From: a virus
DNA length: 64,000 bases
IMG/VR virus record: IMGVR_UViG_3300032236_000656
Coordinates: 1-64,000 of that record
Strand: one strand, 5' to 3'
Under the pieces are notes generated by a model. That model had not been told where the DNA came from, made no database searches, and saw only the letters and a program-made list of their open reading frames with translations. Both the position numbers and the translations under genes were made by a program. Positions 11,516 to 28,541 of the stretch are shown here, piece after piece; position 1 is the first letter of the stretch, and the number at the start of each line of letters is the position of its first letter.

Positions 11516-12118
11516 ATGGCAGATATCATTGACAACGTAAAAAATATTAAGAAGATTTATATGAGCGATTCCAGTCTTGGGATGCTTATGGATTTCGAGC
11601 GTGTACTCGATAGCATGGATCTTTATGCTTTTCCAAATTGGATTTATGGAGAATTAGTTGAAGGTCCTACCGTTAACAAATATTGGGTAAAATGCAAATT
11701 TATGTGGCCTGAGAATCTTATGCCCGATCCCAGTGGTGCGAAACGATTATTGCCATATGGCGCAAAGATTACCTATCAGAGAGACACTGTCAGAATTCCC
11801 ATAAAAATTAATAGTCCCAACGATTATCGTGATGGCAGTAAAAAAGGTAAACTTGTAGAAGCCAAAGTTTGGTACGTTGATATTATGATGCCAAAGAATT
11901 TGATGGCTGATATTAAGCAGGGTTCAGTTGAAATTGCAGGTGAAGATATTGATCTAAGTGATCTACAGAGTGCTTACGAAAAAGACCTAGATCAGAAGTC
12001 AATAACTCAACAAGATTCTGAAGCAGCAATTAATTCAGCGACTGCACAGGCAACTCCTGGCGGAGCACAACAGCAAACAGCACCTGCAGGAGGAGCACCC
12101 AATGCGCCAACTTTCTGA
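11516..12118 (+). CDS. Hypothetical protein with Gln/Ala/Pro-rich tail
   Basis: This 200-residue protein has a globular N-terminal part with many Trp/Tyr (FPNWIYGELVEGPTVNKYWV) and a low-complexity tail rich in Gln, Ala, Gly and Pro from about residue 165. The start at 11516 follows the late motif directly; an ATG at 11498 would overlap it. It ends inside the start of the next gene. Late promoter and neighbours suggest a virion or lysis-time role. I do not recognise the family. Confidence 0.6.
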   Translation: MADIIDNVKNIKKIYMSDSSLGMLMDFERVLDSMDLYAFPNWIYGELVEGPTVNKYWVKCKFMWPENLMPDPSGAKRLLPYGAKITYQRDTVRIPIKINSPNDYRDGSKKGKLVEAKVWYVDIMMPKNLMADIKQGSVEIAGEDIDLSDLQSAYEKDLDQKSITQQDSEAAINSATAQATPGGAQQQTAPAGGAPNAPTF

Positions 12119-12620
12119 AGGTCTTAATAAAGAAGATTTAATCTACCTTGTTGGCGATAAAATTCACTTTGATGAATATGAAAGCAAGATGGGTGAGAAT
12201 CAAGATGTTATAACTGCTAGTTTTAAGATTAAGCAGCGTATGCCTGCACAGGATTTAGTCAGTTTCATTGAAAATGGATACGAATGGGTACTTGATGCTG
12301 ATGTTAGCAGTGGTGAAGTTCACGATGGTGAATTTTTAGTGTTTGTTGAAATGCCTCGTCAAGAAGGTATATTTGAAAATATGATGGAGTTGCTGTCTGA
12401 TTTACAACATTTAACTGATATTAAATTAACTGAATGGAAGTTTAAATGGTACAAGCAAAAAGATTATCATCCATTAGATGAAGAAACTATTTCGCAGTTT
12501 GTGCCGACTAGTCCTGAAAAATACAAAGAGTTTACCGAACAGTTTAAGCCTTTTGTTAAAAATCAAGAAGCACTTAGCGATGAATTAGCACAAATTAAAA
12601 AATTAAGTGGAATAGGATAA
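12102..12620 (+). CDS. Hypothetical protein with CTS-like N-terminus
   Basis: A 172-residue acidic protein beginning MRQLSEGLNKEDL. The first seven residues contain LSE followed by G, fitting the (L/I)xE cleavage rule of T4-type prohead proteases and the MR start shared by five other genes here. The body (TASFKIKQRMPAQDLVSFIE and TDIKLTEWKFKWYKQKDYHP) has no recognised domain. It overlaps the preceding gene by 17 bases. Confidence 0.6.
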   Translation: MRQLSEGLNKEDLIYLVGDKIHFDEYESKMGENQDVITASFKIKQRMPAQDLVSFIENGYEWVLDADVSSGEVHDGEFLVFVEMPRQEGIFENMMELLSDLQHLTDIKLTEWKFKWYKQKDYHPLDEETISQFVPTSPEKYKEFTEQFKPFVKNQEALSDELAQIKKLSGIG

Positions 12621-12624
12621 TCAA

Positions 12625-13023
12625 ATGTTTGGAGGCGGTATGTACAAAATTATAGCAATAATACTTGTAGTACTTGCTGCTGTTGGGTATTTTAAATATA
12701 CTCAAGATAAAATAGCAGAACTTAATCAAACAGTAGCCACTAAGGAATTTGCATTGCAAACTGCTACTGCAACTATTGCTCAACAACAAGAAGATTTAAA
12801 ACGCCAAGGCGAAATATTACAAAAAACAAGTAAAGATTTTGAAGATGCTCGTGCTGCCGTTAACGAACTTGAAGATAAGTTTCGCAAGGACGGCAGAGAT
12901 TTAGATAAGTTTGCCACAGCAAAACCTGGAGAAGTTCAAACTAGAGCCAATGCAGCAACTAAAAAAGTATTCCGTTGCATTGAGAACCAAATCAATAAAG
13001 GAAAGCAGGATGAAAGTTGCTAA
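12625..13023 (+). CDS. Putative inner-membrane spanin (Rz-like)
   Basis: This 132-residue protein has one N-terminal transmembrane segment (YKIIAIILVVLAAVGYF, residues 7-23) followed by a long coiled coil (about 28-100) and a Cys-containing tail. This is the type II signal-anchor plus periplasmic coil layout of an i-spanin. It overlaps by 14 bases a lipoprotein gene in another frame, the usual Rz/Rz1 arrangement. Spanin pairs fuse inner and outer membranes at lysis. Two ATGs (12625 and 12640) each have a purine-rich site upstream; 12625 is used here. Assignment rests on architecture and context. Confidence 0.7.
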   Translation: MFGGGMYKIIAIILVVLAAVGYFKYTQDKIAELNQTVATKEFALQTATATIAQQQEDLKRQGEILQKTSKDFEDARAAVNELEDKFRKDGRDLDKFATAKPGEVQTRANAATKKVFRCIENQINKGKQDESC

Positions 13024-13402
13024 ATTATTTGCCAGTTTTATTCTGGTAACAGCATTAGCAGGGTGTGCAGGAACACCCGCTCCAACTACTGCAATCGTAC
13101 AAGTTGATAAGCCTGCTATGATGTTACCTAATGTAGATCAAGTGCGTCTTAAAGATGTAGAATGGCATGTCATAACACGAGATGCAAAACTAGGAACTGA
13201 TGGTCATATCGATAATGTATGGAAAAAAGCAACTAAAGATAGTTTATTTGCTGTTACAAGTACAGGATATGAAAATATGAGTTTGAATATGGCTGAAATG
13301 ACAAGAGTCATTAGGCAAATGCAGGCACAAGTGCAGGCATACAAAGATTACTATCAAAAAGAACCAGCACCTAAGGAAGACCCAAATGGCCAAAAAAAGT
13401 AA
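13010..13402 (+). CDS. Putative outer-membrane spanin lipoprotein (Rz1-like)
   Basis: This 130-residue protein starts MKVAKLFASFILVTALAGCA: a basic n-region, hydrophobic core and lipobox LAGC, so lipidation at Cys19 is expected. The mature part is Pro-containing at first (GTPAPTT) and ends with a helical coil (NMAEMTRVIRQMQAQVQAYK). It overlaps the inner spanin gene and is followed by the holin. It is longer than classical Rz1 (about 60 residues), but the helix-plus-lipoprotein plan fits larger o-spanins of T4-like phages. AAGCAGG precedes the ATG. Confidence 0.75.
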   Translation: MKVAKLFASFILVTALAGCAGTPAPTTAIVQVDKPAMMLPNVDQVRLKDVEWHVITRDAKLGTDGHIDNVWKKATKDSLFAVTSTGYENMSLNMAEMTRVIRQMQAQVQAYKDYYQKEPAPKEDPNGQKK

Positions 13403-13991
13403 TAAAGGTGTAGAGGATATTGATCCAGATCTCGTAGCCCCAAAGATGGCTATGGACGAAGTTGATGCGCTGCATAGCAACGATCCTCTACCACCACCTC
13501 CTCCTCCCCCACCACCAATGCCTGATATGGCTCCACCACCTCCCCCTATGCCAATGATGGCAGCGCCTACTCCTTTACCAGTTGCGCCTCCTCCGCCGCC
13601 CCCGTCATTTGGCAGCACACCATCATTTGGTGCTGCGCCATCTGGACCTGCTCAACCACAAAGCAGTTATCAGCAACAAGTAAATGCAGATATTGATAAA
13701 GCAATTATTACTCAGCAATTAGAAAAAGAAAATGAGCACTGGGCAAAGGCATTTTGGCGTCCTGCAATGGGATGGCTATATATGGTCATTTGTTTCATGG
13801 ACTTTGTTGGATTTCCATTACTAACTATTTTCCTACCTGTAATTTTTAAACCATTTGGATTCACTGTTCCATATCAGACATGGACCAGTTTAACTCTTTC
13901 AAATGGCGGCCTAATACATTTAGCATTTGGTGCTATATTAGGCGTAAGCGCATTTACAAGAGGACAAGAAAAAATGTCAGGGAAAGTATAA
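13386..13991 (+). CDS. Holin-like membrane protein with polyproline N-terminal extension
   Basis: This 201-residue protein has two parts. Residues 1-95 are soluble and extremely proline-rich (runs of nine and five Pro). Residues 117-195 resemble the 3-TM phage holin family: AFWRPAMGWLYMVICFMDFV, a second hydrophobic stretch ending FKPFGF, then TLSNGGLIHLAFGAILGVSA and a basic tail. Holins make the lesion that starts lysis. It directly follows the spanin pair with a 17-base overlap, so the three form a lysis cassette; no endolysin is visible in the window. The polyproline arm is unusual for this family. Confidence 0.75.
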   Translation: MAKKSNKGVEDIDPDLVAPKMAMDEVDALHSNDPLPPPPPPPPPMPDMAPPPPPMPMMAAPTPLPVAPPPPPPSFGSTPSFGAAPSGPAQPQSSYQQQVNADIDKAIITQQLEKENEHWAKAFWRPAMGWLYMVICFMDFVGFPLLTIFLPVIFKPFGFTVPYQTWTSLTLSNGGLIHLAFGAILGVSAFTRGQEKMSGKV

Positions 13992-14006
13992 GTCATAAAT
14001 TAGTGT

Positions 14007-14834
14007 ATGACACATTATGCAACACTGGGAGTAGCAGATTCTGCTACTCCTGAAGAAATCAAATCTGCTTATAGAAAATTAGCAAAACAACATCATCCCG
14101 ATTTAGGAGGAGATGTTACAAAATTTCAACAAATCAGTGAAGCATATGAAACACTGAATGATGCTGATAAACGTGCTCACTATGATCACCAATTAAGAAA
14201 TCCGCAACCTCAGTTTCATCATAATCCTCATGATATATTCAATGATATCAATGACCATTTTAGTCAAATGTTTGGATTTAATTTTCGTCATGCACAACAG
14301 GTTCCACGCAATCGTAATATAAGAATTCAGTTAACTTTAGATTTCTTAGAAACATTAGATGTATGTCAAAAGACTATCGAATTTAATTTAAGTAATGGCA
14401 CGGAAAGAATTACATTAGATTTGCCTGCAGGCATAAGCGATCAAACAGTATTGCAAATGGCTGGTAGAGGCGACAATGCTATTCAATCAGTTCCAAGAGG
14501 TACATTAGAAATAGTAGTTAAGGTAACACCCCATCCTAAGTTTACTAGAATAGAAGATCATATTATTACTGATGTCACAATAGATTGTTTTCAAGCAATT
14601 GTTGGAACTGAAGTTGATATTACAACACCAAGAAATAGAAGAATAAGATTGAATATTCCTACCGGAACTCAAAACGGAACACAATTTGGAATAACTGATG
14701 AAGGTTTTGCTCGGTTCAATAAAACTATGGGAAAACTTATTGTAAAGGTAAGTGTATTGATTCCCACTGCATTAACATCTGATCAAATTAATTTAGTACA
14801 ACAGATTCAGTCGCTGCGGCCGGTAAATACTTGA
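14007..14834 (+). CDS. DnaJ-class (CbpA-like) co-chaperone
   Basis: This 275-residue protein has an N-terminal J domain (ATLGVADSATPEEIKSAYRK, then the diagnostic HPD in KQHHPDLGGD, residues 20-35) and two C-terminal beta domains (TERITLDLPAGISDQTVLQM and RRIRLNIPTGTQNGTQFGI). The Cys-rich zinc finger of DnaJ is absent, as in CbpA-type class B proteins. J proteins stimulate Hsp70 ATP hydrolysis, so host DnaK is the likely partner. It lies directly before the ClpA-like gene. Confidence 0.92.
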   Translation: MTHYATLGVADSATPEEIKSAYRKLAKQHHPDLGGDVTKFQQISEAYETLNDADKRAHYDHQLRNPQPQFHHNPHDIFNDINDHFSQMFGFNFRHAQQVPRNRNIRIQLTLDFLETLDVCQKTIEFNLSNGTERITLDLPAGISDQTVLQMAGRGDNAIQSVPRGTLEIVVKVTPHPKFTRIEDHIITDVTIDCFQAIVGTEVDITTPRNRRIRLNIPTGTQNGTQFGITDEGFARFNKTMGKLIVKVSVLIPTALTSDQINLVQQIQSLRPVNT

Positions 14835-14859
14835 CACAATGCTTATGCATTGCTATATT
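14831..14859 (+). promoter_or_regulatory. Consensus sigma70 promoter for clpA-like gene
   Basis: TTGACA (14831-14836), 17 bases, TATATT (14854-14859). The predicted +1 (about 14866) falls between the GTG at 14865 and the ATG at 14868, so the transcript would have almost no leader. Confidence 0.8.
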
Positions 14860-14867
14860 TGTAAGTG

Positions 14868-17108
14868 ATGAAACAGATTTATAGTTCAAACGGCGATATA
14901 GATAAAATTGTAAAAGCTGCTCGCGAGTATGCTAAAGAATTCAATCATGAATATTTCATGGTTGAGCACCTACTACTCAGTTTAGTACATGAACGTCATT
15001 TTAATAGTTTGTTAGATGAACTGGGTGTACAAACTAGTCTCTTAATTGAAGAAATCGAAGCATATCTATTAACAATTAATGTATATGCTAACGAAGATGT
15101 GCAGGACGATTTAAAGAAAACCGCCAGTTTAGAACGTGTTTTCAATCGTGCTTTTACTCAAGTAATTTTTAGTGGCAGAAAACAAATCAATTTGATTGAT
15201 CTGTATCTAAGTATTACTAACGAAACACACAGCCATGCTGCTCATTTCCTACAGAAATATGGTGTAGAGAAGGAAGAGGTTGTAAAGAGTTGGACTAAGC
15301 AGCGTAAGGGCAAAACTAATAAGAGTTATGCCGAAAAAGTTCTCGAAAATTATTGTACGAATATGATGACTCTTGCTGGTGAAGGACGTATAGATCCTGT
15401 TATCGGCAGAGATATGGAAATTCATGATCTTGTACAGATTCTAGCAAGGAAGAATAAGAGCAATGTTCTATTGGTCGGCGACGCTGGCGTTGGTAAGACT
15501 GCTATCGCAGAGGGCTTAGTATTAAAAATTGTTGATGACGATGTACCAGAATTCTTAAAGGGTTGGAAGGTATACAGTCTTAATATTGGGCAGTTACTTG
15601 CTGGCACAAAGTATCGTGGTGAATTTGAAGAAAGATTACAAGAAATTCTAACTGCTGCTCAAGACATGAAGAATGTTATTCTCTTCATTGATGAAGCACA
15701 TCAGATGCGTGGTGCCGGCGGCGGCAATAATAGTGCTGTTGATTTGGCCAATATGATTAAGCCTGCACTTGCTCGTGGCGAGATCAAAGTAATTGCATCC
15801 ACAACTTGGGAAGAATACACTCAGAATTTCGAAAAAGATCGTGCATTAATGCGTCGATTTAATAGAATTTCAGTTGACGAACCTAGTGCTGCTGTTGCCA
15901 TTCAAATTTTAGAAGGTATTCGTGACAATTACGAAGGCTTTCATAATGTTGAAATTACTGATGCAGCAATTAAAGCCGCAGTTGAATTAAGTATTCGTTT
16001 CCAAAACGACAAGAAGTTGCCAGATAAGGCAATTGACTTAATCGACAGTGCGGCTGCGTTGAAGCGCAGTACTGATGCAGTTGATCGTCTAATCGATGTT
16101 GTACAGATTCAACGTGAGATTAGTCGTATGACAGGTATTCCTGTTAACCAAATGGAAGAACAAAAGAACAGTGTTGATATTTCAACAGTTGAGACTGATA
16201 TTAAGCATCGTGTTTATGGTCAGGATACTGCTGTTGATCAAATATTAGATCGAGTATGGGTCAACCGTGCCGGTCTTAAGAGTAATAATCGCCCAGTTGG
16301 TGCTTTCCTCCTACTTGGTCCAACTGGCACAGGTAAAACAGAACTTGCTAAGACACTAAGCGAAAGACTTAGTATGAAGTTTATTCGCTTTGATATGAGT
16401 GAATACGGCGAGCGACATAGTGTTAGCCGTTTGATTGGTGCACCTCCTGGCTACGTTGGCTATGAGGATGCTAACTTGGCTGGTGGTCTGCTCATAAGTG
16501 AGGTTGCTAAGAATCCTCATGCCGTTATCTTGTTTGATGAGATAGAAAAAGCACATCCGGAAGTGGTCCAGATTCTGCTACAGATTATGGACGAGGGGTT
16601 TGTAACGGGCTCTAACGGCAAGCGAGCAGACTGCCGCCAAGCAATTATTCTATTAACAAGTAATTTAGGTGCTGCTGATAACGAACGTAATCGTATTGGA
16701 TTTAGTTCGCTTGAACGTACAGGAGAAGATGATGCTGCTGTTAAGGAATTCTTCCGTCCTGAATTTAGAAATCGTTTAGATGCAGTTATTAAATTCAATA
16801 AACTTAATAAAGAAACTATTAAGAAAGTTGCAGGCAAATTCATTGCTGAAATGCAAACTCAACTAATTGACAAGGATATGTCAGTTGAGTTAGATGAAAC
16901 TGCTTGGGAGTATCTTATTAAGAATGGCTATGATCCACAAATGGGTGCAAGGCCAATGGCAAGACTGATACATGAGAAAATTAAAGTTCCTCTGGCTAAG
17001 AAAATACTGTTTGACAACTTGTCTAACGGTGTTATAATTAAGGTCAGCGCCGTTGGCGACGAAGTGGAGCTGTCAGTTGGACAAGAATCAATACCTACAG
17101 AAGTTTAA
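14868..17108 (+). CDS. clpA: ClpA-like AAA+ unfoldase
   Basis: This 746-residue Hsp100 protein has an N-domain (EYFMVEHLLLSLV, residues 30-43), a first AAA module with GDAGVGKT near 206 and LFIDEAH near 270, and a second AAA module with GPTGTGKT near 485, the ClpA/B block DMSEYGERHSVSRLIGAPPGYVGY and FDEIEKAH. The ClpB coiled middle domain is missing, so it is ClpA/C type. The loop NRIGFSS near residue 607 matches the IGL/IGF peptide that docks ClpP. No ClpP is encoded in the window, so host ClpP is the likely partner. Role in infection (host protein turnover or virion remodelling) is inference. Confidence 0.92.
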   Translation: MKQIYSSNGDIDKIVKAAREYAKEFNHEYFMVEHLLLSLVHERHFNSLLDELGVQTSLLIEEIEAYLLTINVYANEDVQDDLKKTASLERVFNRAFTQVIFSGRKQINLIDLYLSITNETHSHAAHFLQKYGVEKEEVVKSWTKQRKGKTNKSYAEKVLENYCTNMMTLAGEGRIDPVIGRDMEIHDLVQILARKNKSNVLLVGDAGVGKTAIAEGLVLKIVDDDVPEFLKGWKVYSLNIGQLLAGTKYRGEFEERLQEILTAAQDMKNVILFIDEAHQMRGAGGGNNSAVDLANMIKPALARGEIKVIASTTWEEYTQNFEKDRALMRRFNRISVDEPSAAVAIQILEGIRDNYEGFHNVEITDAAIKAAVELSIRFQNDKKLPDKAIDLIDSAAALKRSTDAVDRLIDVVQIQREISRMTGIPVNQMEEQKNSVDISTVETDIKHRVYGQDTAVDQILDRVWVNRAGLKSNNRPVGAFLLLGPTGTGKTELAKTLSERLSMKFIRFDMSEYGERHSVSRLIGAPPGYVGYEDANLAGGLLISEVAKNPHAVILFDEIEKAHPEVVQILLQIMDEGFVTGSNGKRADCRQAIILLTSNLGAADNERNRIGFSSLERTGEDDAAVKEFFRPEFRNRLDAVIKFNKLNKETIKKVAGKFIAEMQTQLIDKDMSVELDETAWEYLIKNGYDPQMGARPMARLIHEKIKVPLAKKILFDNLSNGVIIKVSAVGDEVELSVGQESIPTEV

Positions 17109-17775
17109 AGACTTAGGTCTCCAAACTTGGCGTATTAGGCAAGTTGATCAAACTTGGTATAAGCAGCGTTTTGAGTGGAAGATTGAGTTTAACTTTTCTA
17201 CCCAAGATAAAAGTTATGGTAGATATATGGTTGATCACCGTTGGGTACAATTGTTGCGTGAATGCGAAGTACTTAATTTTGAATTTCGCAAACGTCGTGA
17301 AGTGTGGACTACTATCTATACAAGCGACAGCAATTTGATCAATCATATTTTGGATAGAGAAGAATATAGAACTGCGATTGTTAGTTTGGAATATACTAAT
17401 GATCTTTATATAAAAGAGCGCGGCAATCAAACTCAATTGGAAGCCGTCACTGATATCAAGTACGTTAAGCATCCAACTGAATTTTGTTATCATGTTTATC
17501 TTGGTAATTTTGAATGGGAAGATAATTCTGTTAAACAACCGTTAACAGAATATCTTGCTGCAAATAGTAATGATTTTTTGTTTAAGGGGTATTACCAAGA
17601 GGTAATAGACCGATGTAAAAAACATGTTGATCTTAGAGACTACTCTGGTAGATATCGTGGGGTATATGATGGTTTTAACTTCTTTGCTAAAAACACAGAT
17701 GATATTCTAATGTTACATATGATCGCCCCCGGCAAGATTCGTAAAATTATTAAACTTATGGAGAAGGTAAATTGA
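17077..17775 (+). CDS. Hypothetical protein, aromatic and basic
   Basis: This 232-residue protein starts at TTG 17077, seven bases after GGAG and inside the end of the clpA-like gene; TTG 17053 is the alternative. It is rich in Trp, Tyr, Arg and Lys (QTWRIRQVDQTWYKQRFEWK) with beta-strand patterning in the first half and a helical C-terminus (GKIRKIIKLMEKV). No known family is evident. It is coupled to the clpA-like gene and to the next gene. Confidence 0.6.
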   Translation: MDKNQYLQKFKDLGLQTWRIRQVDQTWYKQRFEWKIEFNFSTQDKSYGRYMVDHRWVQLLRECEVLNFEFRKRREVWTTIYTSDSNLINHILDREEYRTAIVSLEYTNDLYIKERGNQTQLEAVTDIKYVKHPTEFCYHVYLGNFEWEDNSVKQPLTEYLAANSNDFLFKGYYQEVIDRCKKHVDLRDYSGRYRGVYDGFNFFAKNTDDILMLHMIAPGKIRKIIKLMEKVN

Positions 17776-18110
17776 AAGTAACGCTCGCACAGGCATTAAT
17801 CGAACGTGGTATCCTAGCCAATAATAGCCGTATTTGGGCTACTTGCCCAATCTTAGCAATGGGCAATGCACCAACTGAAGCATATATTCCTTTAACAGTT
17901 GATCGCATTGTACACGAAGATGGCACAATTAAGTTTCAAGCAGTTCATACATCCGGGCGTAAGTATAGTATTCCCTGCGAAGAAGTTGATAAGATTGACG
18001 GGATGGCACCAGAACGACTAGCAGCAGCATATGATATTAAACCAAATGGCAATACTAAGACAGCAGGTAAGAAGCGAGGCCGTAAGCCAAAAGCATTGCT
18101 AGAAGTGTGA
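17772..18110 (+). CDS. Hypothetical protein with AT-hook-like C-terminus
   Basis: This 112-residue protein uses TTG at 17772, overlapping the previous stop by four bases and preceded by GGAGAAGG. The main part is a small beta domain (AYIPLTVDRIVHEDGTIKFQ). The tail GKKRGRKPKALLEV contains RGRKP, close to the AT-hook core RGRP that binds the minor groove of AT-rich DNA. DNA binding is inference. Confidence 0.6.
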   Translation: MKVTLAQALIERGILANNSRIWATCPILAMGNAPTEAYIPLTVDRIVHEDGTIKFQAVHTSGRKYSIPCEEVDKIDGMAPERLAAAYDIKPNGNTKTAGKKRGRKPKALLEV

Positions 18111-18116
18111 TAAATA
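18109..18116 (+). promoter_or_regulatory. Late promoter motif GATAAATA
   Basis: GATAAATA overlaps the stop of the preceding gene and lies 15 bases before the ATG at 18132, with CAGGAG between. Confidence 0.5.
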
Positions 18117-18131
18117 CTTCAGGAGCACAAT

Positions 18132-18296
18132 ATGGCCAAACTTAATTCAGAAACTATAGAAATCAAAATTAGCGAACTGCTGAAGGACAATGCCGAAGCA
18201 GAAATGATGTTAGACAATACTCTAATTGCTCAATTGATTGAGGTTATTGAAACATTGGTTGGTGATAAAAGACTTGTGGAAGTAACACGAAAATGA
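18132..18296 (+). CDS. Small acidic helical protein, 54 residues
   Basis: ATG at 18132 follows AGGAG, and the frame ends at TGA 18294-18296, overlapping the next ATG (ATGA). The product starts MAKLNSETIEIKISELLKDN and is nearly all helix, acidic and without motifs. Late promoter motif, ribosome site and overlap support a real gene. Confidence 0.6.
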   Translation: MAKLNSETIEIKISELLKDNAEAEMMLDNTLIAQLIEVIETLVGDKRLVEVTRK

Positions 18297-18703: not shown

Positions 18704-18728
18704 AATCAACTAGAAAGAGTTTCAATCA

Positions 18729-20062: not shown

Positions 20063-21202
20063 ATGCGAGCAACAGAATTTCTTACTGAAGAATATGATCC
20101 AACCAAAGCAAGAGTACCTCACCCTGAAGATGAGGTACTTATTGGTGGTTCAGTAGGTGCTAAATCAGCCATTGCTGCAATTAAGCAGATGGCAACAAAT
20201 CCTGAAACAATTAGTATTAAGCCAGACGGTAAACCTGCTTTAATTTGGGGAAGAGACGAAAAAGGATTTTCTCTTGTTGACAAACATATGTTCAAAGCAG
20301 GAACATTACCACGTAATCCTAATGAACTAGCACAAGTTTATTCTGCTCGTAAAGGTGGCGGCAGAGAAGATTTAATTGCAATGATGACTGCACTTTGGCC
20401 TCAGTTTGAAGCAAGTGTACCAAATAGTTTTCGTGGGTGGCTATTTGGTGACCTACTATACAGTCAAACCCCTCCAATTCAAAACAACAATTTTGTGTTC
20501 AAACCTAATACCGTTGTATATACAGTTGCTACTAATAGCGAATTAGGGCAGCAGATGGCAAAAAGTACATCTGGTATTGTTGTACATACATTCTTTTCAA
20601 AAGCACCAGGAATGGATCCACAAGGTCAATTTGTTGCTCCTCCAGGAAGACATATTAGTAAATTACCCGCAGCCATTAATAATAAAGGTCCATTATTAAT
20701 GATAACTGATCAATTCACAACTCCTCCTAGAGTTAAACTTCCGCCTGATCTAAAGTCTATTGAAAACTTTATTACTTCTAATGGTGCTGTAATGGATAAG
20801 TTCTTAGACGAAGCAACATTGACATCATTGAAGATAAAAGATCTTCCTTCATTGCTACAAGCATACGGCAATTATAGAGTTAAGCAACGTAATTTTGATA
20901 ATTTTGGTAGCGATTTTATTACTGATTTCTTAGCAAGCAAAAAAGTAAGTCCGCAAAAGATGAATAATATTCAAAAATATATCGAAGCAAATAGAGCAGG
21001 ATATAAAGTATTGTGTCAGGCATTTATTGGTATAATGCGTGTTAAGGATCATATTGTTAATAATCTAGACGCACACCCTGCTCAAATGCAAGCACATATT
21101 AATGATGTACCAGGGCAGGAAGGATATCTTGTTCATACTAAAACTGGTCTATTCAAAACAGTTGACCGCGCAAAGTTCAGTGCTGCTAACTTTGAACATT
21201 AA
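20063..21202 (+). CDS. Ligase-fold nucleotidyltransferase-like protein with CTS-like leader
   Basis: This 379-residue protein has ISIKPDGKPALIWGRDEKG at residues 50-68, the KxDG adenylation motif I of ATP-dependent DNA/RNA ligases, with Lys53 the candidate adenylated residue. FRGWLFGDLLYSQ near 123 fits motif III, SGIVVHTFF near 170 fits motif IV, and YLVHTKTGLFKTVDRAKF near the end resembles a motif IV/V pair. Identity with known ligases is low, and similar proteins in T4-like phages are annotated only as unknown-function families. The leader MRATEFLTEEY (LTE followed by E) resembles a capsid-targeting sequence, so it may be packaged and clipped. Confidence 0.55.
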   Translation: MRATEFLTEEYDPTKARVPHPEDEVLIGGSVGAKSAIAAIKQMATNPETISIKPDGKPALIWGRDEKGFSLVDKHMFKAGTLPRNPNELAQVYSARKGGGREDLIAMMTALWPQFEASVPNSFRGWLFGDLLYSQTPPIQNNNFVFKPNTVVYTVATNSELGQQMAKSTSGIVVHTFFSKAPGMDPQGQFVAPPGRHISKLPAAINNKGPLLMITDQFTTPPRVKLPPDLKSIENFITSNGAVMDKFLDEATLTSLKIKDLPSLLQAYGNYRVKQRNFDNFGSDFITDFLASKKVSPQKMNNIQKYIEANRAGYKVLCQAFIGIMRVKDHIVNNLDAHPAQMQAHINDVPGQEGYLVHTKTGLFKTVDRAKFSAANFEH

Positions 21203-21229: not shown

Positions 21230-24013
21230 ATGCGTGTAGAAGAACTTCATGAAGAAAATATTAAGAAAGTAGTTTTTACTTTTGGCCGATTGAACCCTCC
21301 ACATTTTGGACATCATGCATTAATCCAAACATTACAAAAAGAAGCACAGAAGCAAGGTGCCGATTGGTTCTTATTTGTCAGTGCTAAAACTGGCGATGAG
21401 AAGAATCCTCTTACATATGAACAAAAGATTTGGTGGATACAGGCATTATTTCCTGAGACTAAAGGACATATTGTCAATGATGCCAGTATCAAAACTCCAT
21501 TGATTGCTGCTACTTGGTTATACAAGCAAGGTTATCGTGCTGCTACCTTTGTTGCAGGCGAAGACGATATGTCCAGTTATGGAGAGATGATTAAAGGTGG
21601 CAATGCACATGGACAAAATAATCCAGATGCAGTTAAACAAGGTAAAGGATTTATTTTCAATCCATTAGACTTTGCTATTAGTCCACGTTTAGCCAGTGCT
21701 ACTAATGCTCGTAGAAATGTCACAGATGGTGATCCAGAAGCATTTGTTCGCAGTATACTTGGTCCTAAGATTAATCCGCGATTAGAAAAATTAGTGCATG
21801 ATCAATTGTATCCAACATTGCGTAAGGCAATGGGATTAAGTGAAAGCGTTGACGAAAGCGCAGAACTTAATAAGACTACTCCTAGTGTAAGAGATCTTGC
21901 TAAGAAGTATGCAACAGATCCTTCTACCATACATCATCAAGTCAACAGAGGTGTTAAGGTAGAATTTGAACATACAAACGACATCGAAGTTGCTACTGAA
22001 ATAGCAATGGATCATCTTGGTGAAAGATTGGATTACTACGATCTATTAGACAAGTTAGAGAAAACTCCAAAAAAAAAGTTTGGTGAAAACTTTGCTGATG
22101 GTAAAGGTCCGGGTAGACCAGGCGATAGTCAAAGACACAGTATCCCAAAAACAGTAGATGAAGCAATGTGGCCTTTCAAAAAGAAGAAAGCGCCAGAAAT
22201 GTCGGCGCCTAAGCGTTGGCCAGATCGTGATGATGATCTAGAACAATGGATGCGTGATAAGATTACACATTATAAGAGCAAAGGTTGGGATCCTGCTGTA
22301 TTCTTTAGTCCAGCTACTGGTGATTACTTCCCCATCTATTTCGCAACTGGCTTCAGATATAATGATGCTGCTAAACAAGCATACCGTAACATCAAGCGAG
22401 AGTTCCCAGATCTGGTCAAACGTGCTAGGGAAGAGATCAGCACTCCAATGGCAATGCGTATAAATCAAAGTAGAGTTGGTGATCACGAAGATTGGCCAGA
22501 AAATTCCCCTAGTGTATATGAGAACTTCGCTGATGGTAAAGGACCCGGACATCCTGGGGACAGTCAGCGTCATGGCATCCCAAAGAAAGCAACAATAGCA
22601 CAGTTAGAGAAAGCAAGTCATGCTAAAGGTCGTAAAGGACAATTAGCACGTTGGCAACTGAACATGCGTCGTGGTAAGAAGAAAGCCAATGAAGAAATAA
22701 CTAACGAAGTTGCAGATCAGCCATATCGTTTTATTTCACCAGTAAGTACTTCAACCACACAAAAATCTATATTCCAAACTGATGGCGGCGCAAGAATGCA
22801 GGTCGCCATTATGATACCTCAAAATTCTGATACTGCACATATTGGCTTTTATGATGCCACTGATCAAGATAATCCTACAATAGCAGTAACAGGCAAGGGA
22901 GATGCTTTCCGTGTGTTTGCTACTGTAGGTGCTATCGTAAAGCAGTTTGTTGACAAGCGTAAGCCACCCTACATTAATTTTGCTGGTAAGTCATCTGAAT
23001 CAGGTCGTATTAAATTATATGATATGATTGCCAAGAACATTGGTCGTTATCTACCAGATTATAAGTTGGTTGATACTGGCATGGTCTCAGGCGGTGATAA
23101 AGGATATGTGTTTCAGAGAGTAGCACAAGAAAGTGTAGTTGAAGAAAAGAAACCTAAAAAGCCAAAAACTATTATTGACGGTGCGTTAAAGACATTGATT
23201 GCTAAAGGCCGTAGCGAAGATGAAGCAATTGCTGATCTAAAGAAAGAAATCGACAGCAAGTTTTATGATTTGGATGAATGGTCTCCTATGGAGATAGCAA
23301 TTATGGAAGGTGGTCATCTATTGGATGATTACGATGAGAATTTAGAAGAAACACTTAAAAAAGTTAAAGGCAAGTGGGCTTTGGTCAGTAGACAAAATCC
23401 TAAAAAGGTGTTACAATACTATCATGGTAGTCAACATCCTAGCAAGGAATGGGTGAACAAAGTGGAACGCAGAGTTCATAGTTTTGAAAGTGTAATGGAA
23501 GATGATTCGGTTAAGCCTCGTGTTTACCTAGACATGGATGGCGTGCTTGCTGACTTCTTTGGAGAATGGTCAAGATTAGCAGGAGTTGATCATTATAAAG
23601 ATATTAACAATGCAGAGGAATCATTACAGTTAGTGAGAGATCATCCAACATTTTGGGTTGATCTTCCTATGCTGCCTCATGCAAAAGCATTAGTAAAAAC
23701 AGTTATCGAAAAGTATGGTGAATATAGAATTTGCAGTAAACCACTAGAAGGTGATGATCGCAGTAAACCCGGCAAGATGGCATGGATTAAGAAACACTTA
23801 AGTGACATGCCTCCTGTTGAAGTTGTATTAACTGCGGACAAAGCAAAGTATGCAATGCACGAAGGCGTGCCAAGTATACTTGTTGATGACTTTGGCGTTA
23901 ACATTAACGCTTGGAAGACATCTGGTGGTATTGGCATCAAGTATGATGACTCGGCATTTCCGCAAGTTGAAAAGATACTGGAAAAGATTGCCAAGTCTGG
24001 AGTTCTAAAATGA
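21230..24013 (+). CDS. Modular nucleotidyltransferase-HAD nucleotidase fusion, putative internal virion protein
   Basis: This protein has 927 residues. Residues 1-10 (MRVEELHEEN) form the CTS-like leader. Residues 11-205 are an HxGH-type adenylyl/cytidylyltransferase: FTFGRLNPPHFGHHALIQTL and a C-terminal SATNARRN in place of ISSTxIR; NMNAT-like is the nearest guess. A basic cassette ENFADGKGPG(R/H)PGDSQRH occurs twice (about 287 and 432), the second followed by GRKGQLARWQLNMRRGKKK. Residues 500-640 form a domain I do not identify. Residues 762-927 are a HAD phosphatase of 5'-nucleotidase type (VYLDMDGVLADF). It follows a late motif and is longer than any single-domain relative. Confidence 0.7.
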   Translation: MRVEELHEENIKKVVFTFGRLNPPHFGHHALIQTLQKEAQKQGADWFLFVSAKTGDEKNPLTYEQKIWWIQALFPETKGHIVNDASIKTPLIAATWLYKQGYRAATFVAGEDDMSSYGEMIKGGNAHGQNNPDAVKQGKGFIFNPLDFAISPRLASATNARRNVTDGDPEAFVRSILGPKINPRLEKLVHDQLYPTLRKAMGLSESVDESAELNKTTPSVRDLAKKYATDPSTIHHQVNRGVKVEFEHTNDIEVATEIAMDHLGERLDYYDLLDKLEKTPKKKFGENFADGKGPGRPGDSQRHSIPKTVDEAMWPFKKKKAPEMSAPKRWPDRDDDLEQWMRDKITHYKSKGWDPAVFFSPATGDYFPIYFATGFRYNDAAKQAYRNIKREFPDLVKRAREEISTPMAMRINQSRVGDHEDWPENSPSVYENFADGKGPGHPGDSQRHGIPKKATIAQLEKASHAKGRKGQLARWQLNMRRGKKKANEEITNEVADQPYRFISPVSTSTTQKSIFQTDGGARMQVAIMIPQNSDTAHIGFYDATDQDNPTIAVTGKGDAFRVFATVGAIVKQFVDKRKPPYINFAGKSSESGRIKLYDMIAKNIGRYLPDYKLVDTGMVSGGDKGYVFQRVAQESVVEEKKPKKPKTIIDGALKTLIAKGRSEDEAIADLKKEIDSKFYDLDEWSPMEIAIMEGGHLLDDYDENLEETLKKVKGKWALVSRQNPKKVLQYYHGSQHPSKEWVNKVERRVHSFESVMEDDSVKPRVYLDMDGVLADFFGEWSRLAGVDHYKDINNAEESLQLVRDHPTFWVDLPMLPHAKALVKTVIEKYGEYRICSKPLEGDDRSKPGKMAWIKKHLSDMPPVEVVLTADKAKYAMHEGVPSILVDDFGVNINAWKTSGGIGIKYDDSAFPQVEKILEKIAKSGVLK

Positions 24014-24023
24014 GGAGCGTAAC

Positions 24024-24290
24024 ATGCGTTGCACCAATGATAGAGACTGGGATCAGATCCTTACAATATGGGAGAATTTCTCTCTAATAGAACCTATCAA
24101 TATAAAGACTGTGGAAATAAAACGCCAAGCAGTTGAATACTTGGGCATCGATAATCATCACAAATTAAACAAACACGAATTAAGATCCTTGTTAAGCAAG
24201 GCACATAAAATGAAAAACAGCACGAAAAAAGAAGAACGTGCTAGAGGGAACGAATTAGAAAAACAACTTCTAAGCGTTTTTAACTACTAA
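24024..24290 (+). CDS. Small hypothetical protein
   Basis: An 88-residue, helical, very basic protein (HKMKNSTKKEERARGNELEK) preceded by GAGGAG at seven bases. It starts ten bases after the 927-residue gene and shares its operon. No family recognised. Confidence 0.55.
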   Translation: MRCTNDRDWDQILTIWENFSLIEPINIKTVEIKRQAVEYLGIDNHHKLNKHELRSLLSKAHKMKNSTKKEERARGNELEKQLLSVFNY

Positions 24291-24297
24291 GTAATTG

Positions 24298-24588
24298 ATG
24301 GAATCATTACTAAGAGTTAGAATTAAAGTACCCGAATCATCAACTAAAAATGGTAGATATAGACTTTGGCTTGATAAATTTATGTTGATCGAGCGTATAT
24401 ATCCTATTGAAATTGGCAGTTATCTTCAATTAGAAGAAATTGTTCATGTTAAATTATCCCCTGGCATACACCATATAAAGATTGAAAATTTAGAGTTGGA
24501 AACGCAAGCAATTATAAATGCTGTGGCAATTAATGATACAATATATCTCAATTTATCCACTTTAGTTCAATCTTTCGAATTACGATAA
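24298..24588 (+). CDS. Small beta-rich hypothetical protein
   Basis: A 96-residue protein starting MESLLRVRIKVPESSTKNGR, with alternating strands typical of a small beta-sandwich and no cysteines. ATG 24298 is preferred to the adjacent TTG 24295; the ribosome site is weak. Function unknown. Confidence 0.5.
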   Translation: MESLLRVRIKVPESSTKNGRYRLWLDKFMLIERIYPIEIGSYLQLEEIVHVKLSPGIHHIKIENLELETQAIINAVAINDTIYLNLSTLVQSFELR

Positions 24589-24591
24589 ATA
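24584..24591 (+). promoter_or_regulatory. Late promoter motif GATAAATA
   Basis: GATAAATA overlaps the preceding stop and lies 22 bases before the ATG at 24614. Confidence 0.5.
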
Positions 24592-24613
24592 TTTTCAACA
24601 CAGGATTTTCCAG

Positions 24614-25663
24614 ATGAACGAACGACACGTTAAACTCCTTACCCAGCGTTATGCCGTTGAACAGCGCATTCGTGAATTACAAAATACAACAATATCAGAG
24701 TCAAATAGATCAGCAGCAGATGCATTGCTTGCTAAACTTCATGCTACACTTGCTAGAATTAATGAAAGTTCTGAAGTTGTTGAACTCAGTATTCCTTCAA
24801 GAGATAATAGCAATGATCACGAAATGGGACATCACCATCAAGAACTAGATCATGAAGTAGATATGGCACGTGCAGAATTACATCGTGCTGCACATTCTGC
24901 TATTGCACTTGGAAAAATTCTTGAAAGAATTAGCGAAGAACAAGGGTTAGAAGGTTGGGTCCAGGCTAAGATTACCAAGGCTGCTGATTATCTAGACAGC
25001 GTATATCATTATTTAGAATATGAGATGAATGCCAGTCATGATGTTGATGAAGGTGTTGCAGCATATGGCCCCGGCGAAGATCCAAATGATCCACAGTCTG
25101 CAAAGCCTCAGGCTCCTGGTGCACCACAACAAAATCCAAATGCACAGCAGCCTGGACAACAGAGTACAACTCCTCCTGCAGGTGGCTCAACTCCTGGATC
25201 CACAAGTCCAGGTATGGTAAAGATGGCTAAGTTGGACGCACAAAAGAAACCAATTGGCACACCACTAATGGTCAAGAGTGCAGAAATTGCAGCAAAGCAA
25301 AAGCAAGGTTTCTTCGTTATTGGTGAAAGCAAAGAAGAAAAGAAAGTTGCACACTGTTCACAGTGCGGTAAAGGATTTAGTGCATCGGGTGTAGATGCAA
25401 AGTATAAGACTGGATTTAGTCATTGTAAAGATCATAAGGGTATGAAAGTAATTGCAGAAGATGCAAGTGCTGGTGCGAGTAGTGCAGGTTCAATGGGAGG
25501 AAGTCCGACTGGATTTGCAAGCGGTGGCATTGGGATGCAGAAGCGTAAGAAAAAGAAGATTGGTGAAGAGACTGTAGAAAATGATGAACCAACTTTTACA
25601 GGCTACTGGAAAGGCAAGGACAAAGGTAAGCCTGGCAAGAAGATGGTAGGAAGTAGTACATAA
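24614..25663 (+). CDS. Putative virion-associated protein with zinc-ribbon-like segment
   Basis: This 349-residue protein has a helical N-terminal region (1-150) ending with GLEGWVQAKITKAADYLDSV then YHYLEYEM, a motif I associate with T4-like phage proteins. A Pro/Gln/Ala-rich linker (160-200) follows. Residues 245-275 contain CSQCGKGFS...HCKDH, a Cys/His arrangement that could bind zinc. The tail is basic (QKRKKKKIGEE). Late motif and position among CTS-type genes suggest a capsid-interior or prohead role, which is inference. It abuts the next gene (TAATG). Confidence 0.6.
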   Translation: MNERHVKLLTQRYAVEQRIRELQNTTISESNRSAADALLAKLHATLARINESSEVVELSIPSRDNSNDHEMGHHHQELDHEVDMARAELHRAAHSAIALGKILERISEEQGLEGWVQAKITKAADYLDSVYHYLEYEMNASHDVDEGVAAYGPGEDPNDPQSAKPQAPGAPQQNPNAQQPGQQSTTPPAGGSTPGSTSPGMVKMAKLDAQKKPIGTPLMVKSAEIAAKQKQGFFVIGESKEEKKVAHCSQCGKGFSASGVDAKYKTGFSHCKDHKGMKVIAEDASAGASSAGSMGGSPTGFASGGIGMQKRKKKKIGEETVENDEPTFTGYWKGKDKGKPGKKMVGSST

Positions 25664-26856
25664 TGCGAATTAACGAAGTAGCAACTTATTCATATATTGA
25701 AGAAACAAGCCAACTATTTCAGGCTCTTGCTCTTCGTCATACTATGCTAGTAGAGGGTCAACTAGACGAAGCAGGTGTGTGGGATATTGTTAAAGGAACA
25801 GTTGGCGGCGTAATGAAAGGCATTAAAACTGCCGATGATGCCATTAACAAACTTGGTCGTCTTGTTCAGCAAACTAAACCTGTTGAAGAATTTGATACTA
25901 AAGTTGATGCTGTTGTTGCTGATCTTAAACAAAAATTAGGTGCTAAATCTCCTAAAGCCGTTGCAACTGCTGAGAAGTATGCTGCTTGGGCTAAAGAACA
26001 TCCCATTAAACAAGGTCTTATCATTGGTGCATTAACTGCTATTGCTGCTCTTGCTGTTGGTCCTGGTGCCGCAGCGGCCGCTGGATTTATTCTTCGTGCA
26101 ACAAATGAATATATGAAAGGTGAAAAGGCATCAACTGCGATTGGCAAAGGTGTAAAGTCTGCGGCAGTTGGTGCTGCATTAGGTGCTCTTGCAAATGCTG
26201 CTATTCCTGAAATTGGAGAGATGTTTAAGTTAGCCAAACCTATATTAAAAGATGTACCTGGCTATAATGCATTAACAACATTTAATGCAACATATATATT
26301 TAACGGAAATCCGTTAGTTAACATTTCAAGAATGATGGATGATGATTCTATTAAAAAATATTATGCTCTTACTAAAGAATTAGATGCAGCATTAACTGAA
26401 ATGACTGCTTGGCATCAAGATGGAACTAAAGTTGGTCCTGAAAAAGCTCAACAAGCCTTGGCTAAAATTAAAAATTTCTTGAACAGCAAAGAATTAAACG
26501 AAAAAGTAGCAGACATACTAGCAAACAATGCTTCTGTAGTTGATAAACAGGCAGCGGCTCAAAAAGCTTACAATGCTGCCTTAGCAACTGCCACAACAAC
26601 TAATACTCAAATTGATAATGTAATAAAAATATTAAAACAAGTATCTACTGCTGGCGCTGCTGGTACAGCCGCTAGCGGATTAGCAGGAAAAGCAGCAGGA
26701 GCAGTTAAAGGTGCCGCTGGTGCTGCAAGAGATAAATTTAGAGACTTTGTTCCAAGTAAAACATTTAAAACTGTATCACAGCAAATTAAAGATCTACAGC
26801 CTGCTGACAAGCAGAAGTTAGTATCAATATTAAAGCAAGAACTCGCAACAGCATAA
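25663..26856 (+). CDS. Hydrophobic putative internal/ejection protein with CTS-like leader
   Basis: This 397-residue protein starts MRINEVATYSYIEETS; candidate (L/I)xE sites occur at IEE (residues 12-14) and LDE followed by A near 35. Residues 110-185 are an Ala/Gly-rich hydrophobic region (IGALTAIAALAVGPGAAAAA, then STAIGKGVKSAAVGAALGAL) that could form membrane-inserting helices. The C-terminal third is Ala/Lys-rich helix. A membrane-active ejection or pore protein stored in the capsid would fit; this is inference from composition and leader. Translationally coupled to the preceding gene. Confidence 0.6.
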   Translation: MRINEVATYSYIEETSQLFQALALRHTMLVEGQLDEAGVWDIVKGTVGGVMKGIKTADDAINKLGRLVQQTKPVEEFDTKVDAVVADLKQKLGAKSPKAVATAEKYAAWAKEHPIKQGLIIGALTAIAALAVGPGAAAAAGFILRATNEYMKGEKASTAIGKGVKSAAVGAALGALANAAIPEIGEMFKLAKPILKDVPGYNALTTFNATYIFNGNPLVNISRMMDDDSIKKYYALTKELDAALTEMTAWHQDGTKVGPEKAQQALAKIKNFLNSKELNEKVADILANNASVVDKQAAAQKAYNAALATATTTNTQIDNVIKILKQVSTAGAAGTAASGLAGKAAGAVKGAAGAARDKFRDFVPSKTFKTVSQQIKDLQPADKQKLVSILKQELATA

Positions 26857-26869
26857 GGGAGTATCAATC

Positions 26870-27016
26870 ATGGCAAAGGCAATCAAAGAAGTAAAGTTAG
26901 AAAGAGTTAAGAATAATAAAGGCACAAGCCAAGGTATTGGCAACCTTAAGATGAGTTCAATGAATAAACATACAAAGCGCAGTTTTAAGAAATATAGAGG
27001 CCAGGGTAAACCATGA
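26870..27016 (+). CDS. Small very basic protein, 48 residues
   Basis: ATG at 26870 is preceded by GGGAG, and the stop at 27014-27016 overlaps the next ATG (ATGA). The product starts MAKAIKEVKLERVKNNKGTS and has about 14 Lys/Arg, so nucleic-acid binding is plausible. Overlap and ribosome site support a real gene. Confidence 0.6.
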   Translation: MAKAIKEVKLERVKNNKGTSQGIGNLKMSSMNKHTKRSFKKYRGQGKP

Positions 27017-28188
27017 GAATAAGTGAGATATTAGAAGCAAATTATTGGAAGGCAGACAAAACTTTTAGACAAAAGCGTTTGCCAACATTAGAGCCTGATC
27101 CAGTAGATAATGCTGAAAGATTTGATGCTGCTAAACATGATCAAGCAGATGATCACGGTCCAGAGATCGATGTTAACAATGCTCAAATGAGAGCAGCAAT
27201 AACTCAATTGTTATTGAAGTTACCACCAAGACTCGAACGTATTCTTAGAGAAAGATTCTTCTTAGATAAAACATTAGAAGAAATTGGTGCAAAATATAAT
27301 ATATCTCCAGGTAGAATTAGACAACTGGAAGCAAAGGCATTGAGACTGTTAAAGCATCCTAGTCGTTCTAAACAACTAAAGTCAATGCTACAAACCAGTA
27401 CTCAAGAAGCAGCCAACCCTGCACAACAAGCAGCCATTGCTATCAATATGAAAAAGCATGGTAAGAAGCCTAAAGATGACATGGACGAAGCCAAGCAACG
27501 CCTAGATCCAAAATGCTGGACTGGTTATCATAAAGCCGGTACTAAGATGAAGGGTGGCATCAGAGTTAATAACTGTGTCAAGGATGAAAGCATCAATGAA
27601 TTTGCCCCAGACGAAGGTCCAGAACGTGATGATGGCGGCAAGCCAGAATTCATGTCATGGGAAGACTTTGTTGCCGCAGTTGCTAATCTGACTAAGTCTG
27701 CTTTTGATGTTAAGATTGGTTTCAAAAATAAGAAACTAAACAAGACACAAGCAGCAGCAAAGTTTATTCCACACGATCCATTTGAATTTGGACCTGTATC
27801 CTTGTATGCTTTTAAGGATCGCAGACCTCCTTACCGTGTAGGTGTTAGGGCACATATGCAGATTGGTGCATACAGCAAACACGGAGAACAACTTCTTAGT
27901 CAGTATAAGATCCCGCAGAACAATCTACGCGAAGTCTTGATGACCCCTGCAAATGCAACCAGGATTGCTCATGCTATCATGCAGAATACTAATGGAGCAT
28001 TGAAGGAAAGTGTTGAAGAATCAAGCGGTCACATTCCTAAAAACGAAAAAGAAGCACATGATCCACGTTGGTCCAATGCTTTAACTGTTGATATTGGTCC
28101 TGGTGAAGATAAGAAACAAGCTGCTAAGTTTGGTTTTAAGGTAAGTAATAGTGGTCCACCCAAACTACGAGCAAATGGAAAATTCTAA
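27013..28188 (+). CDS. RpoD region 4-containing protein with CTS-like leader
   Basis: This 391-residue protein begins MRISEILEANYW, with ILE followed by A as a fitting prohead-protease site. Residues 58-126 match sigma70 region 4: LPPRLERILRERFFLDKTLE, EIGAKYNISPGRIRQLEAKA and LRLLKHPSRS, the helix-turn-helix that reads the -35 box. Regions 2 and 3 are absent. Residues 164-188 carry the phage motif LDPKCWTGYHKAG.KMKGG.RVNNC. The C-terminal half is of unknown fold and ends with DPRWSNALTVDIGPGEDKK. A transcription role (host RNAP or -35 recognition) is inferred from the domain; packaging is inferred from the leader. Confidence 0.75.
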   Translation: MRISEILEANYWKADKTFRQKRLPTLEPDPVDNAERFDAAKHDQADDHGPEIDVNNAQMRAAITQLLLKLPPRLERILRERFFLDKTLEEIGAKYNISPGRIRQLEAKALRLLKHPSRSKQLKSMLQTSTQEAANPAQQAAIAINMKKHGKKPKDDMDEAKQRLDPKCWTGYHKAGTKMKGGIRVNNCVKDESINEFAPDEGPERDDGGKPEFMSWEDFVAAVANLTKSAFDVKIGFKNKKLNKTQAAAKFIPHDPFEFGPVSLYAFKDRRPPYRVGVRAHMQIGAYSKHGEQLLSQYKIPQNNLREVLMTPANATRIAHAIMQNTNGALKESVEESSGHIPKNEKEAHDPRWSNALTVDIGPGEDKKQAAKFGFKVSNSGPPKLRANGKF

Positions 28189-28541
28189 TGCGTGTTAAAG
28201 AAATTATGGAAGCAGTGATGTCGGTTGGTGTACAGTCTAAACATCCTATCAGCGCAGGTGCTCGTGGATTAATGGGCGCACGTTTTCGTTATGATCTTGC
28301 AGTTGAAAATAATGCAAACGACAGCGATAAAAATGCAGTTGATCAACTTGAACATAATTTAAAGTATATTCCAAAAACTGACTACGATCACATTGATATG
28401 CTAATGCAGACTATCTGCGAAAAATTTAGAATTGAACCTAAAAAATTGCATGATATGTTTATTCAAAAATTTAATTGCACTCCTGACGCTTATGCTATAA
28501 ACTATAAGAAGTCAAGAGAAGGTCAGCCAAGAAAGATCTAA
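28188..28541 (+). CDS. Small hypothetical protein with CTS-like leader
   Basis: A 117-residue protein starting MRVKEIMEAVMSVGV; IME followed by A is an exact (L/I)xE site. The rest is mixed and basic at the end (YKKSREGQPRKI). It abuts the sigma-domain gene (TAATG), so the two are probably made together. Function unknown. Confidence 0.6.
   Translation: MRVKEIMEAVMSVGVQSKHPISAGARGLMGARFRYDLAVENNANDSDKNAVDQLEHNLKYIPKTDYDHIDMLMQTICEKFRIEPKKLHDMFIQKFNCTPDAYAINYKKSREGQPRKI

What the first reader, a model, noticed from the sequence alone, without database searches (positions are those of the whole stretch)
12102..28541. Six proteins share a T4-type capsid-targeting leader
Six otherwise unrelated products start MR followed within a few residues by an (L/I)xE site: MRQLSE|G (12102), MRATEFLTE (20063), MRVEELHE (21230), MRINEV...IEE (25663), MRISEILE|A (27013), MRVKEIME|A (28188). 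T4 internal proteins carry MKTYQEFIAE-type leaders that direct them into the prohead and are cut after (L/I)xE by gp21. The likeness in length, charge and cleavage rule suggests a cargo set packed in the capsid and injected with the DNA.
Basis: partly seen in the sequence, partly recalled or inferred. Interest (0 to 1): 0.8.

Follow-up and report, generated by a model that had tools for sequence, protein, structure and literature searches.

The report
Phage head-packaging leader on cargo proteins
A group of otherwise unrelated proteins in this environmental giant phage begins with a short tag resembling the one phage T4 uses to load helper proteins into its head, and relatives show the tag being attached to and detached from different enzymes, so it probably marks proteins the phage carries and injects with its DNA.

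Summary
In detail: all six starts exist, in a 72.7-kb fragment of a T4-type jumbo phage related to RaK2, Atu_ph07 and Phosso. Four starts (20063, 21230, 27013, 28188) fit the pattern mapped genetically in T4's capsid-targeting sequence. 25663 is a variant whose ortholog has a clean leader. 12102 is a different, shorter, conserved LxE start on a virion protein.

The window alone is weak statistics: 4 matches against 1.5 expected, although they fall in 9 consecutive genes. Relatives carry the argument. The same leader sits on unrelated bodies (DUF6267, GNAT, chitinase, kinase). DUF6267 occurs with and without it. Relatives that carry gp21 have [LI]xE sites in their gp22 and gp23 homologs. Sequence downstream of a leader recurs inside fused proteins directly after an internal LxE in 12 of 22 queries, against 2 of 184 controls. 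In Atu_ph07, an 11-gene run of such leaders lies in a published virion-proteome cluster.

Best reading: T4-type capsid-targeting leaders cut by a gp21-like protease, with some cargo built as cleavable multidomain proteins. Targeting, cleavage and injection are inferred, not shown. New variant of a known kind.

The parts
12102..12119 (+). Short LxE start MRQLSE|GL of a phrog_13138 virion structural protein (12102-12620); conserved LxE but not a T4-length targeting leader
20063..20089 (+). Leader MRATEFLTE|E; full T4-type pattern (A3, F6, L7, E9)
20063..21202 (+). DUF6267 protein, 379 aa; invariant KxDG, GD, EG and KxVxR motifs like covalent nucleotidyltransferases/ligases
21230..21253 (+). Leader MRVEELHE|E, compact form; orthologs MRVEELHE and MRLDELEE
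21230..24013 (+). 927-aa multidomain protein: cytidylyltransferase-like, DUF5661, two NFADGKGPG(R/H)PGDS modules, DUF6934, TLKKVKG module, NT5C nucleotidase
23339..23353 (+). Internal site NLEE|T before the TLKKVKG module; the same module is a free-standing leader protein MRAHEFITE|TLKKVKG in G002 and G003
25663..25704 (+). Variant leader MRINEVATYSYIEE|T on a 397-aa Ala/Gly-rich protein without family match; further LxE|G and LxE|A sites at residues 31 and 36
27013..27036 (+). Leader MRISEILE|A, compact form
27013..28188 (+). 391-aa protein with sigma-70 region 4 plus an AANPAQQAAIAI module (leader form in G004: MKVKDILE|AANPAQQAAIAI) and a DMDE|AKQRLDPKCW module
28188..28211 (+). Leader MRVKEIME|A; orthologs MRLHEILSE|A (full T4 form), MRIKEIIE|A, MRLKEIKE|A; in G003 the same body follows an internal KVTE|A
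28188..28541 (+). 117-aa protein (phrog_10346, unknown function)
24614..25663 (+). 349-aa neighbour without M[RK] leader but with many IxE sites (ISE|S 29, INE|S 51, IGE|S 238, IAE|D 282); possible multi-cut core or cargo protein

Best explanation
The leaders are T4-type capsid-targeting sequences. While the prohead is built, the N-terminal 8-9 residues (positive residue, then hydrophobics spaced 3-4 apart, then xE) bind the scaffold core and carry the protein into the prohead. A gp21-family protease then cuts after the E, freeing the mature protein inside the head, from which it would be injected with the DNA. Several cargo proteins are fusions whose domain joints carry the same [LIVMF]xE site, so the protease could also separate the domains. 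Shown by sequence: the leaders, their independence from the bodies, the equivalence of leader and internal site, and gp21/gp22/gp23 with such sites in relatives. Inferred: core binding, cutting in vivo, presence in this phage's virion, injection, and the functions (candidates: ligase-like nucleotidyltransferase, nucleotide/NAD metabolism, transcription redirection, host modification).
For: (1) The leader pattern matches residues mapped in T4 IPIII: 4 and 7 for targeting, 8 and 10 for processing (PMC9026906). In T4 the full pattern returns six genes, including ipII, ipIII, gp24 and gp2, a DNA-end protector. (2) Excess over shuffled N-termini: G001 24 vs 7.1, Atu_ph07 42 vs 15.4, C48C1 12 vs 3.5. 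(3) Same leader on unrelated bodies in G001: DUF6267, DUF6934, chitinase, GNAT, three kinase-like paralogs beside gp23. (4) The leader is a separable add-on: cyanophage DUF6267 starts M(A)KNTHLEHLED, while other phages have MLDFKNFITE|QKNTHMTHIED and similar. (5) gp21 is found in G001, RaK2, Atu_ph07, Phosso, T4 and three Kyanoviridae; the gp23 and gp22 homologs of G001, RaK2 and Atu_ph07 carry [LI]xE|[SGAN] sites. (6) Leader/internal-site equivalence: 12 of 22 leader queries vs 2 of 184 controls (Fisher p about 6e-12, about 3e-8 collapsed by hand to families). (7) S-SM2: leader protein MKTLKQFLKE|TPTNSVGNGGYTSS matches gp23 IAE|QPTNAVGNGGYTSS. (8) Atu_ph07 gp53-gp63, eleven consecutive leader genes, lie in CDS 31-76, where 29 of 46 products were detected in virions. 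(9) AlphaFold gives the leader of 20063 low confidence (mean pLDDT 59 for residues 1-10) in a model of mean pLDDT 93.
Against: No virion proteomics for this phage; the per-protein list for Atu_ph07 was not held, so which of gp53-gp63 were detected is unknown. gp21 not found in the fragment (the family rang in no control genome either). RaK2 and Phosso show no excess of the motif (16 vs 10-14, 5 vs 7.9), so the device is not universal in this lineage. Compact leaders are shorter than T4's ten residues. In the 927-aa protein, LxE sites are only mildly concentrated in linkers. The cytidylyltransferase domain shows no exact leader/internal-site match. Atu_ph07 gp53-63 are paralogs, so they count as about one event.
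Confidence: 0.77

Rival explanations
1. The leaders are gp21-processed propeptides of head core or structural proteins that help build the head and are not injected effectors.
For: gp22, gp23 and gp67-like proteins of relatives carry the same sites; 12102 is a conserved virion structural protein; the 24614 neighbour is rich in IxE sites like a core protein.
Against: Leader-bearing bodies are enzymes and regulators (DUF6267, cytidylyltransferase, nucleotidase, sigma-70 region 4, GNAT, kinase-like, chitinase), vary between relatives, and DUF6267 also occurs without a leader, which does not suit an essential core component.
Confidence: 0.15
2. The shared MR..E start is a helix or targeting signal for something else (chaperone, membrane or replication site), and the xE is incidental.
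For: Short amphipathic N-termini serve many purposes (general knowledge); no cutting was observed here, and the search for gp21 in this fragment found nothing.
Against: Equivalence between the residue after the leader E and the residue after an internal LxE, and gp23 sharing the downstream sequence after IAE, point to the E as a cut site.
Confidence: 0.05
3. Chance: many phage proteins start MR/MK and LxE is common.
For: In this contig alone the strict motif gives 4 against 1.5 expected; RaK2 and Phosso show no excess.
Against: Clustering in 9 consecutive genes, orthologs keeping the pattern while other residues change, excess in G001, Atu_ph07 and C48C1.
Confidence: 0.03

Closest known systems
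T4 internal proteins IPI-IPIII with the capsid-targeting sequence (Mullaney and Black 1996, as reviewed in PMC9026906 and PMC3012670)
   Same: Short N-terminal leader, hydrophobic spacing, (L/I)xE cut rule, diverse bodies behind a common leader, T4-type gp21/gp22/gp23 in relatives
   Different: Jumbo and environmental phages; larger multidomain cargo including predicted enzymes and a sigma-like protein; leader one or two residues shorter; internal sites at domain joints
T4 Alt, packaged and cleaved ADP-ribosyltransferase
   Same: Large packaged enzyme with cleaved ends; Atu_ph07 gp53-63 look ADP-ribosyltransferase-like by motif
   Different: No ADP-ribosyltransferase was recognised among the window cargo; the Atu_ph07 similarity is by eye, no Pfam match
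Polyvalent proteins of phages and conjugative elements (Iyer et al. 2017, PMC5512222, cited in PMC7824862)
   Same: Multidomain effector-like proteins thought to enter the cell with the DNA
   Different: Here a T4-type leader and LxE joints supply a specific packaging and processing route
phiKZ and SPN3US ejection proteins (PMC5694885, PMC10052503)
   Same: Head proteins cut after Glu by a gp21-like protease; many packaged in giant heads
   Different: Their propeptides are mostly 100-250 residues, not 8-10; different phage lineage

Membership tests
T4-type CTS internal proteins | N-terminal leader with hydrophobics at the T4 residue 4, 7, 8 positions and E at position 10 | tested here: met
   Four of six match the full form or a compact form shorter by one or two residues; 25663 variant; 12102 does not match
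T4-type CTS internal proteins | Common leader on otherwise unrelated bodies | tested here: met
   Window bodies unrelated; G001 leaders on several unrelated families
T4-type CTS internal proteins | gp21-family prohead protease and T4-type core in the same phage | tested here: inconclusive
   Not found in the 72.7-kb fragment; present in G001, RaK2, Atu_ph07, Phosso
T4-type CTS internal proteins | Cut after (L/I)xE in vivo | not testable with these tools
   Only indirect: and gp23/gp22 sites
T4-type CTS internal proteins | Protein present inside the virion | not testable with these tools
   Nearest published data: Atu_ph07 CDS 31-76 virion cluster (PMC6102473); per-protein table not held
T4-type CTS internal proteins | Injected with the DNA | not testable with these tools
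   Inference from the T4 precedent only
Covalent nucleotidyltransferase/ligase superfamily (20063) | Motifs I (KxDG), III, IV (EG), V (KxV) in order | tested here: met
   K53, D55, G56, D130, E353, G354, K365, V367, R369 invariant in 44 sequences, G129 nearly so; also in alignment A1. Motif assignment is by eye
Covalent nucleotidyltransferase/ligase superfamily (20063) | Fold match to solved ligases | tested here: inconclusive
   Most of the top hits are DNA/RNA ligases, but E is 0.13 or worse and query-normalised TM-score 0.22 or less

The most novel reading that the evidence does not exclude
Across T4-type phages the leader is a portable cargo tag, and the same protease site is reused at domain joints, so phages can assemble injected effector sets as modular, cleavable multidomain proteins by shuffling modules bounded by LxE sites. 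A simple N-terminal scan could then list the injected proteome of any T4-type phage, including uncultured ones.
Probability: 0.5. Interest if true: 0.78.

Novelty: new variant of a known kind. Interest (0 to 1): 0.64.

Why it matters
Proteins that enter the cell with phage DNA act before any phage gene is expressed and are prime candidates for blocking first-line defences (IPI in T4). They are normally found only by proteomics of cultured phages. A readable leader would let them be predicted from sequence in uncultured jumbo phages and cyanophages, and gives testable candidate roles to families of unknown function such as DUF6267, for which no paper was found in the held library. The interchange of leader and internal site suggests how such cargo evolves.

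Tried and rejected
Megablast of the region against phages: no match. A first strict regex and a loose one were replaced by the T4-genetics motif. Enrichment of LxE sites in linkers of the 927-aa protein: only mild, not used as proof. Fisher test of Atu_ph07 leaders in virion clusters (p=0.0003) discounted because the genes are paralogs and one cluster boundary is approximate. Leader queries DSL_67407 and Phosso_318985 look like chance motif hits, not cargo; DSL_67407 is nevertheless one of the 12 exact cases. The Melnitz query was added by hand after it had been noticed. A search with the G001 kinase-like paralog found only one further contig. PDB fold search for DUF6267 gave only weak ligase hits. 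The literature search for 'capsid targeting sequence' returned 15 papers, by their titles and the passages read mostly on T4 (others include P1, P22 and SPN3US) and none on cyanophages or RaK2-like phages; subscription papers are not held.

Full report
What was checked. The six starts are real and at the stated places. The window is part of a 72,693-base IMG/VR virus record. Genes for MazG, a DNA polymerase, a clamp loader, PhoH, two virion structural proteins, DnaJ and Clp come in the order seen in the jumbo phages Atu_ph07 and Phosso, and in part in RaK2 (DnaJ and Clp in the window are read from sequence). Products: 12102 phrog_13138 virion structural protein; 20063 DUF6267; 21230 cytidylyltransferase-like + DUF5661 + DUF6934 + NT5C; 27013 sigma-70 region 4; 28188 phrog_10346; 25663 no family.

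Is it more than chance? T4 genetics gives an independent definition of the leader: in IPIII the first ten residues suffice, residues 4 and 7 matter for targeting, 8 and 10 for processing (PMC9026906). Written as M-x(1-2)-PHI-x-x-PHI-PHI-x-E, with a form one residue shorter, this finds four window genes against 1.5 expected, all within nine consecutive called genes; the script tested an eight-gene span (probability 0.0016), so the nine-gene value is of the order of 0.002. In T4 the full form returns six genes: ipII, ipIII, gp24, gp2 (a DNA-end protector), gp61.1 and one not looked up (gp24 identified from its sequence and place). Enrichment is strong in G001, a 333-kb relative (24 vs 7.1), Atu_ph07 (42 vs 15.4) and C48C1 (12 vs 3.5), absent in RaK2 and Phosso. 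S-SM2 and DSL-LC02 show little overall excess but contain near-exact T4 leaders such as MKTYREFVAE.

Leader and body are independent. In G001 the leader heads DUF6267 (MKIREIITE|S), a DUF6934 protein (MRANEFITE|S), a chitinase/endolysin-like protein (MRANEFIVE|T), a GNAT protein (MRAKEFLPE|G) and three tandem kinase-like paralogs (MRI(N/T)E(I/L)(I/L)(N/T)E|S) just downstream of gp23. DUF6267 itself occurs without a leader in cyanophages (MAKNTHLEHLED), with one in others (MLDFKNFITE|QKNTHMTHIED, MNFKEHITE|QKNTH, MQDFQDYLTE|DRNTH, MISFKTFIAE|ATSSKNTH), and in some phages fused behind another nucleotidyltransferase-like domain. Orthologs of 28188 show both leader lengths: MRLHEILSE|A and MRIKEIIE|A.

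The protease and its rule. The gp21 family (PF03420) is found in G001, RaK2, Atu_ph07 and Phosso, in T4 and in three Kyanoviridae. Homologs of its known substrates in G001, RaK2 and Atu_ph07 carry [LI]xE|[SGAN] sites: gp23 MSKQLLE|SRW...LLAE|SSAGTTTAGN in G001...ALFE|SATAGATTAGN in RaK2...PLME|NATAGATSSGN in Atu_ph07, and many sites in gp22. In S-SM2 a leader protein MKTLKQFLKE|TPTNSVGNGGYTSS shares its post-E sequence with gp23 after IAE.

Leader and internal site are interchangeable. I took the 60 residues after each leader E and looked for homologs inside other proteins. Twelve of 22 leader queries had [LIVMF]xE exactly at the aligned position in at least one internal homolog, against 2 of 184 non-leader N-termini; within three residues, 21 of 22 against 31 of 184 (Fisher p about 6e-12, about 3e-8 when collapsed by hand to about nine families). 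One of the twelve, DSL_67407, looks like a chance motif hit, and one, the Melnitz query, was added by hand. Clear cases: MRAHEFITE|TLKKVKG (G002, G003) versus NLEE|TLKKVKG inside window 21230; window MRVKEIME|AVMSVG versus G003 KVTE|AAMSVG; MKVKDILE|AANPAQQAAIAI (G004) versus internal VPE|AANPAQQ in G006; Melnitz MKTFAELQE|GVYDPNIFKAIF versus Atu_ph07 gp53 VTE|GVNDKHIFKAIF; Atu_ph07 gp63 GNAT-SITE|T-domain versus MKWHQLTE leaders.

Published virion data. Atu_ph07 gp53-gp63 are eleven consecutive genes starting M[RK]WxQL[TN]E or similar. They lie in CDS 31-76 (24,083-59,704), a cluster with 29 of 46 products detected in virions, only two of them predicted structural (PMC6102473). The per-protein table was not available, so this is cluster-level support.

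Cargo. DUF6267 shows conserved KxDG, GD, EG and KxVxR motifs. An AlphaFold model is confident (mean pLDDT 93) with the leader at low confidence, and most of the best PDB matches are DNA/RNA ligases, though all weak. A ligase-like nucleotidyltransferase is my inference. By function the set resembles host-takeover or counter-defence proteins; that too is inference.

Conclusion. Capsid-targeting leaders are the best explanation for four of the six, likely for 25663; 12102 is a conserved virion protein with a short LxE start. Targeting, cutting and injection need experiment. The system is a variant of the T4 internal-protein system; I found no description of its extension to multidomain cargo with protease joints in the papers searched.

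Noticed in passing
G001 (L026-L042), e.g. 175328, 82871, 103270; window 20063: In G001, 29 gene starts have TAAATA (T4 late-promoter-like) ending exactly 4 or 5 bases before the ATG, other spacings being rare; this suggests leaderless late mRNAs. Window 20063 shows the same layout..
   Followed up: partly
window 20063-21202 and homologs L114-L192: DUF6267 has ligase-type nucleotidyltransferase motifs; in many phages it is fused behind a pol-beta-like nucleotidyltransferase starting xE|GGNVFKD with variable upstream length.
   Followed up: partly
Atu_ph07 NC_042013 39484-50592 (L240): Tandem family gp53-gp63 with YRG, SFICT and NE(V/I) motifs, ADP-ribosyltransferase-like by eye, some fused to a P-loop kinase or GNAT domain.
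   Followed up: partly
T4 NC_000866 18966-19130 and 76061-76885: T4 gp61.1 (54 aa) starts MKTFKEFIKE, close to the IPIII leader, and gp2 starts MAIFQIINE|S.
   Followed up: no
window 22088-22160 and 22523-22590, inside 21230: Repeated module E|NFADGKGPG(R/H)PGDSQRHxIPK, each copy preceded by an (F/V)xE site.
   Followed up: no
G001 174187-175903 (L034): Three tandem leader-bearing kinase-like paralogs (phrog_15752, T7 gp0.7-type annotation) just downstream of gp23.
   Followed up: partly
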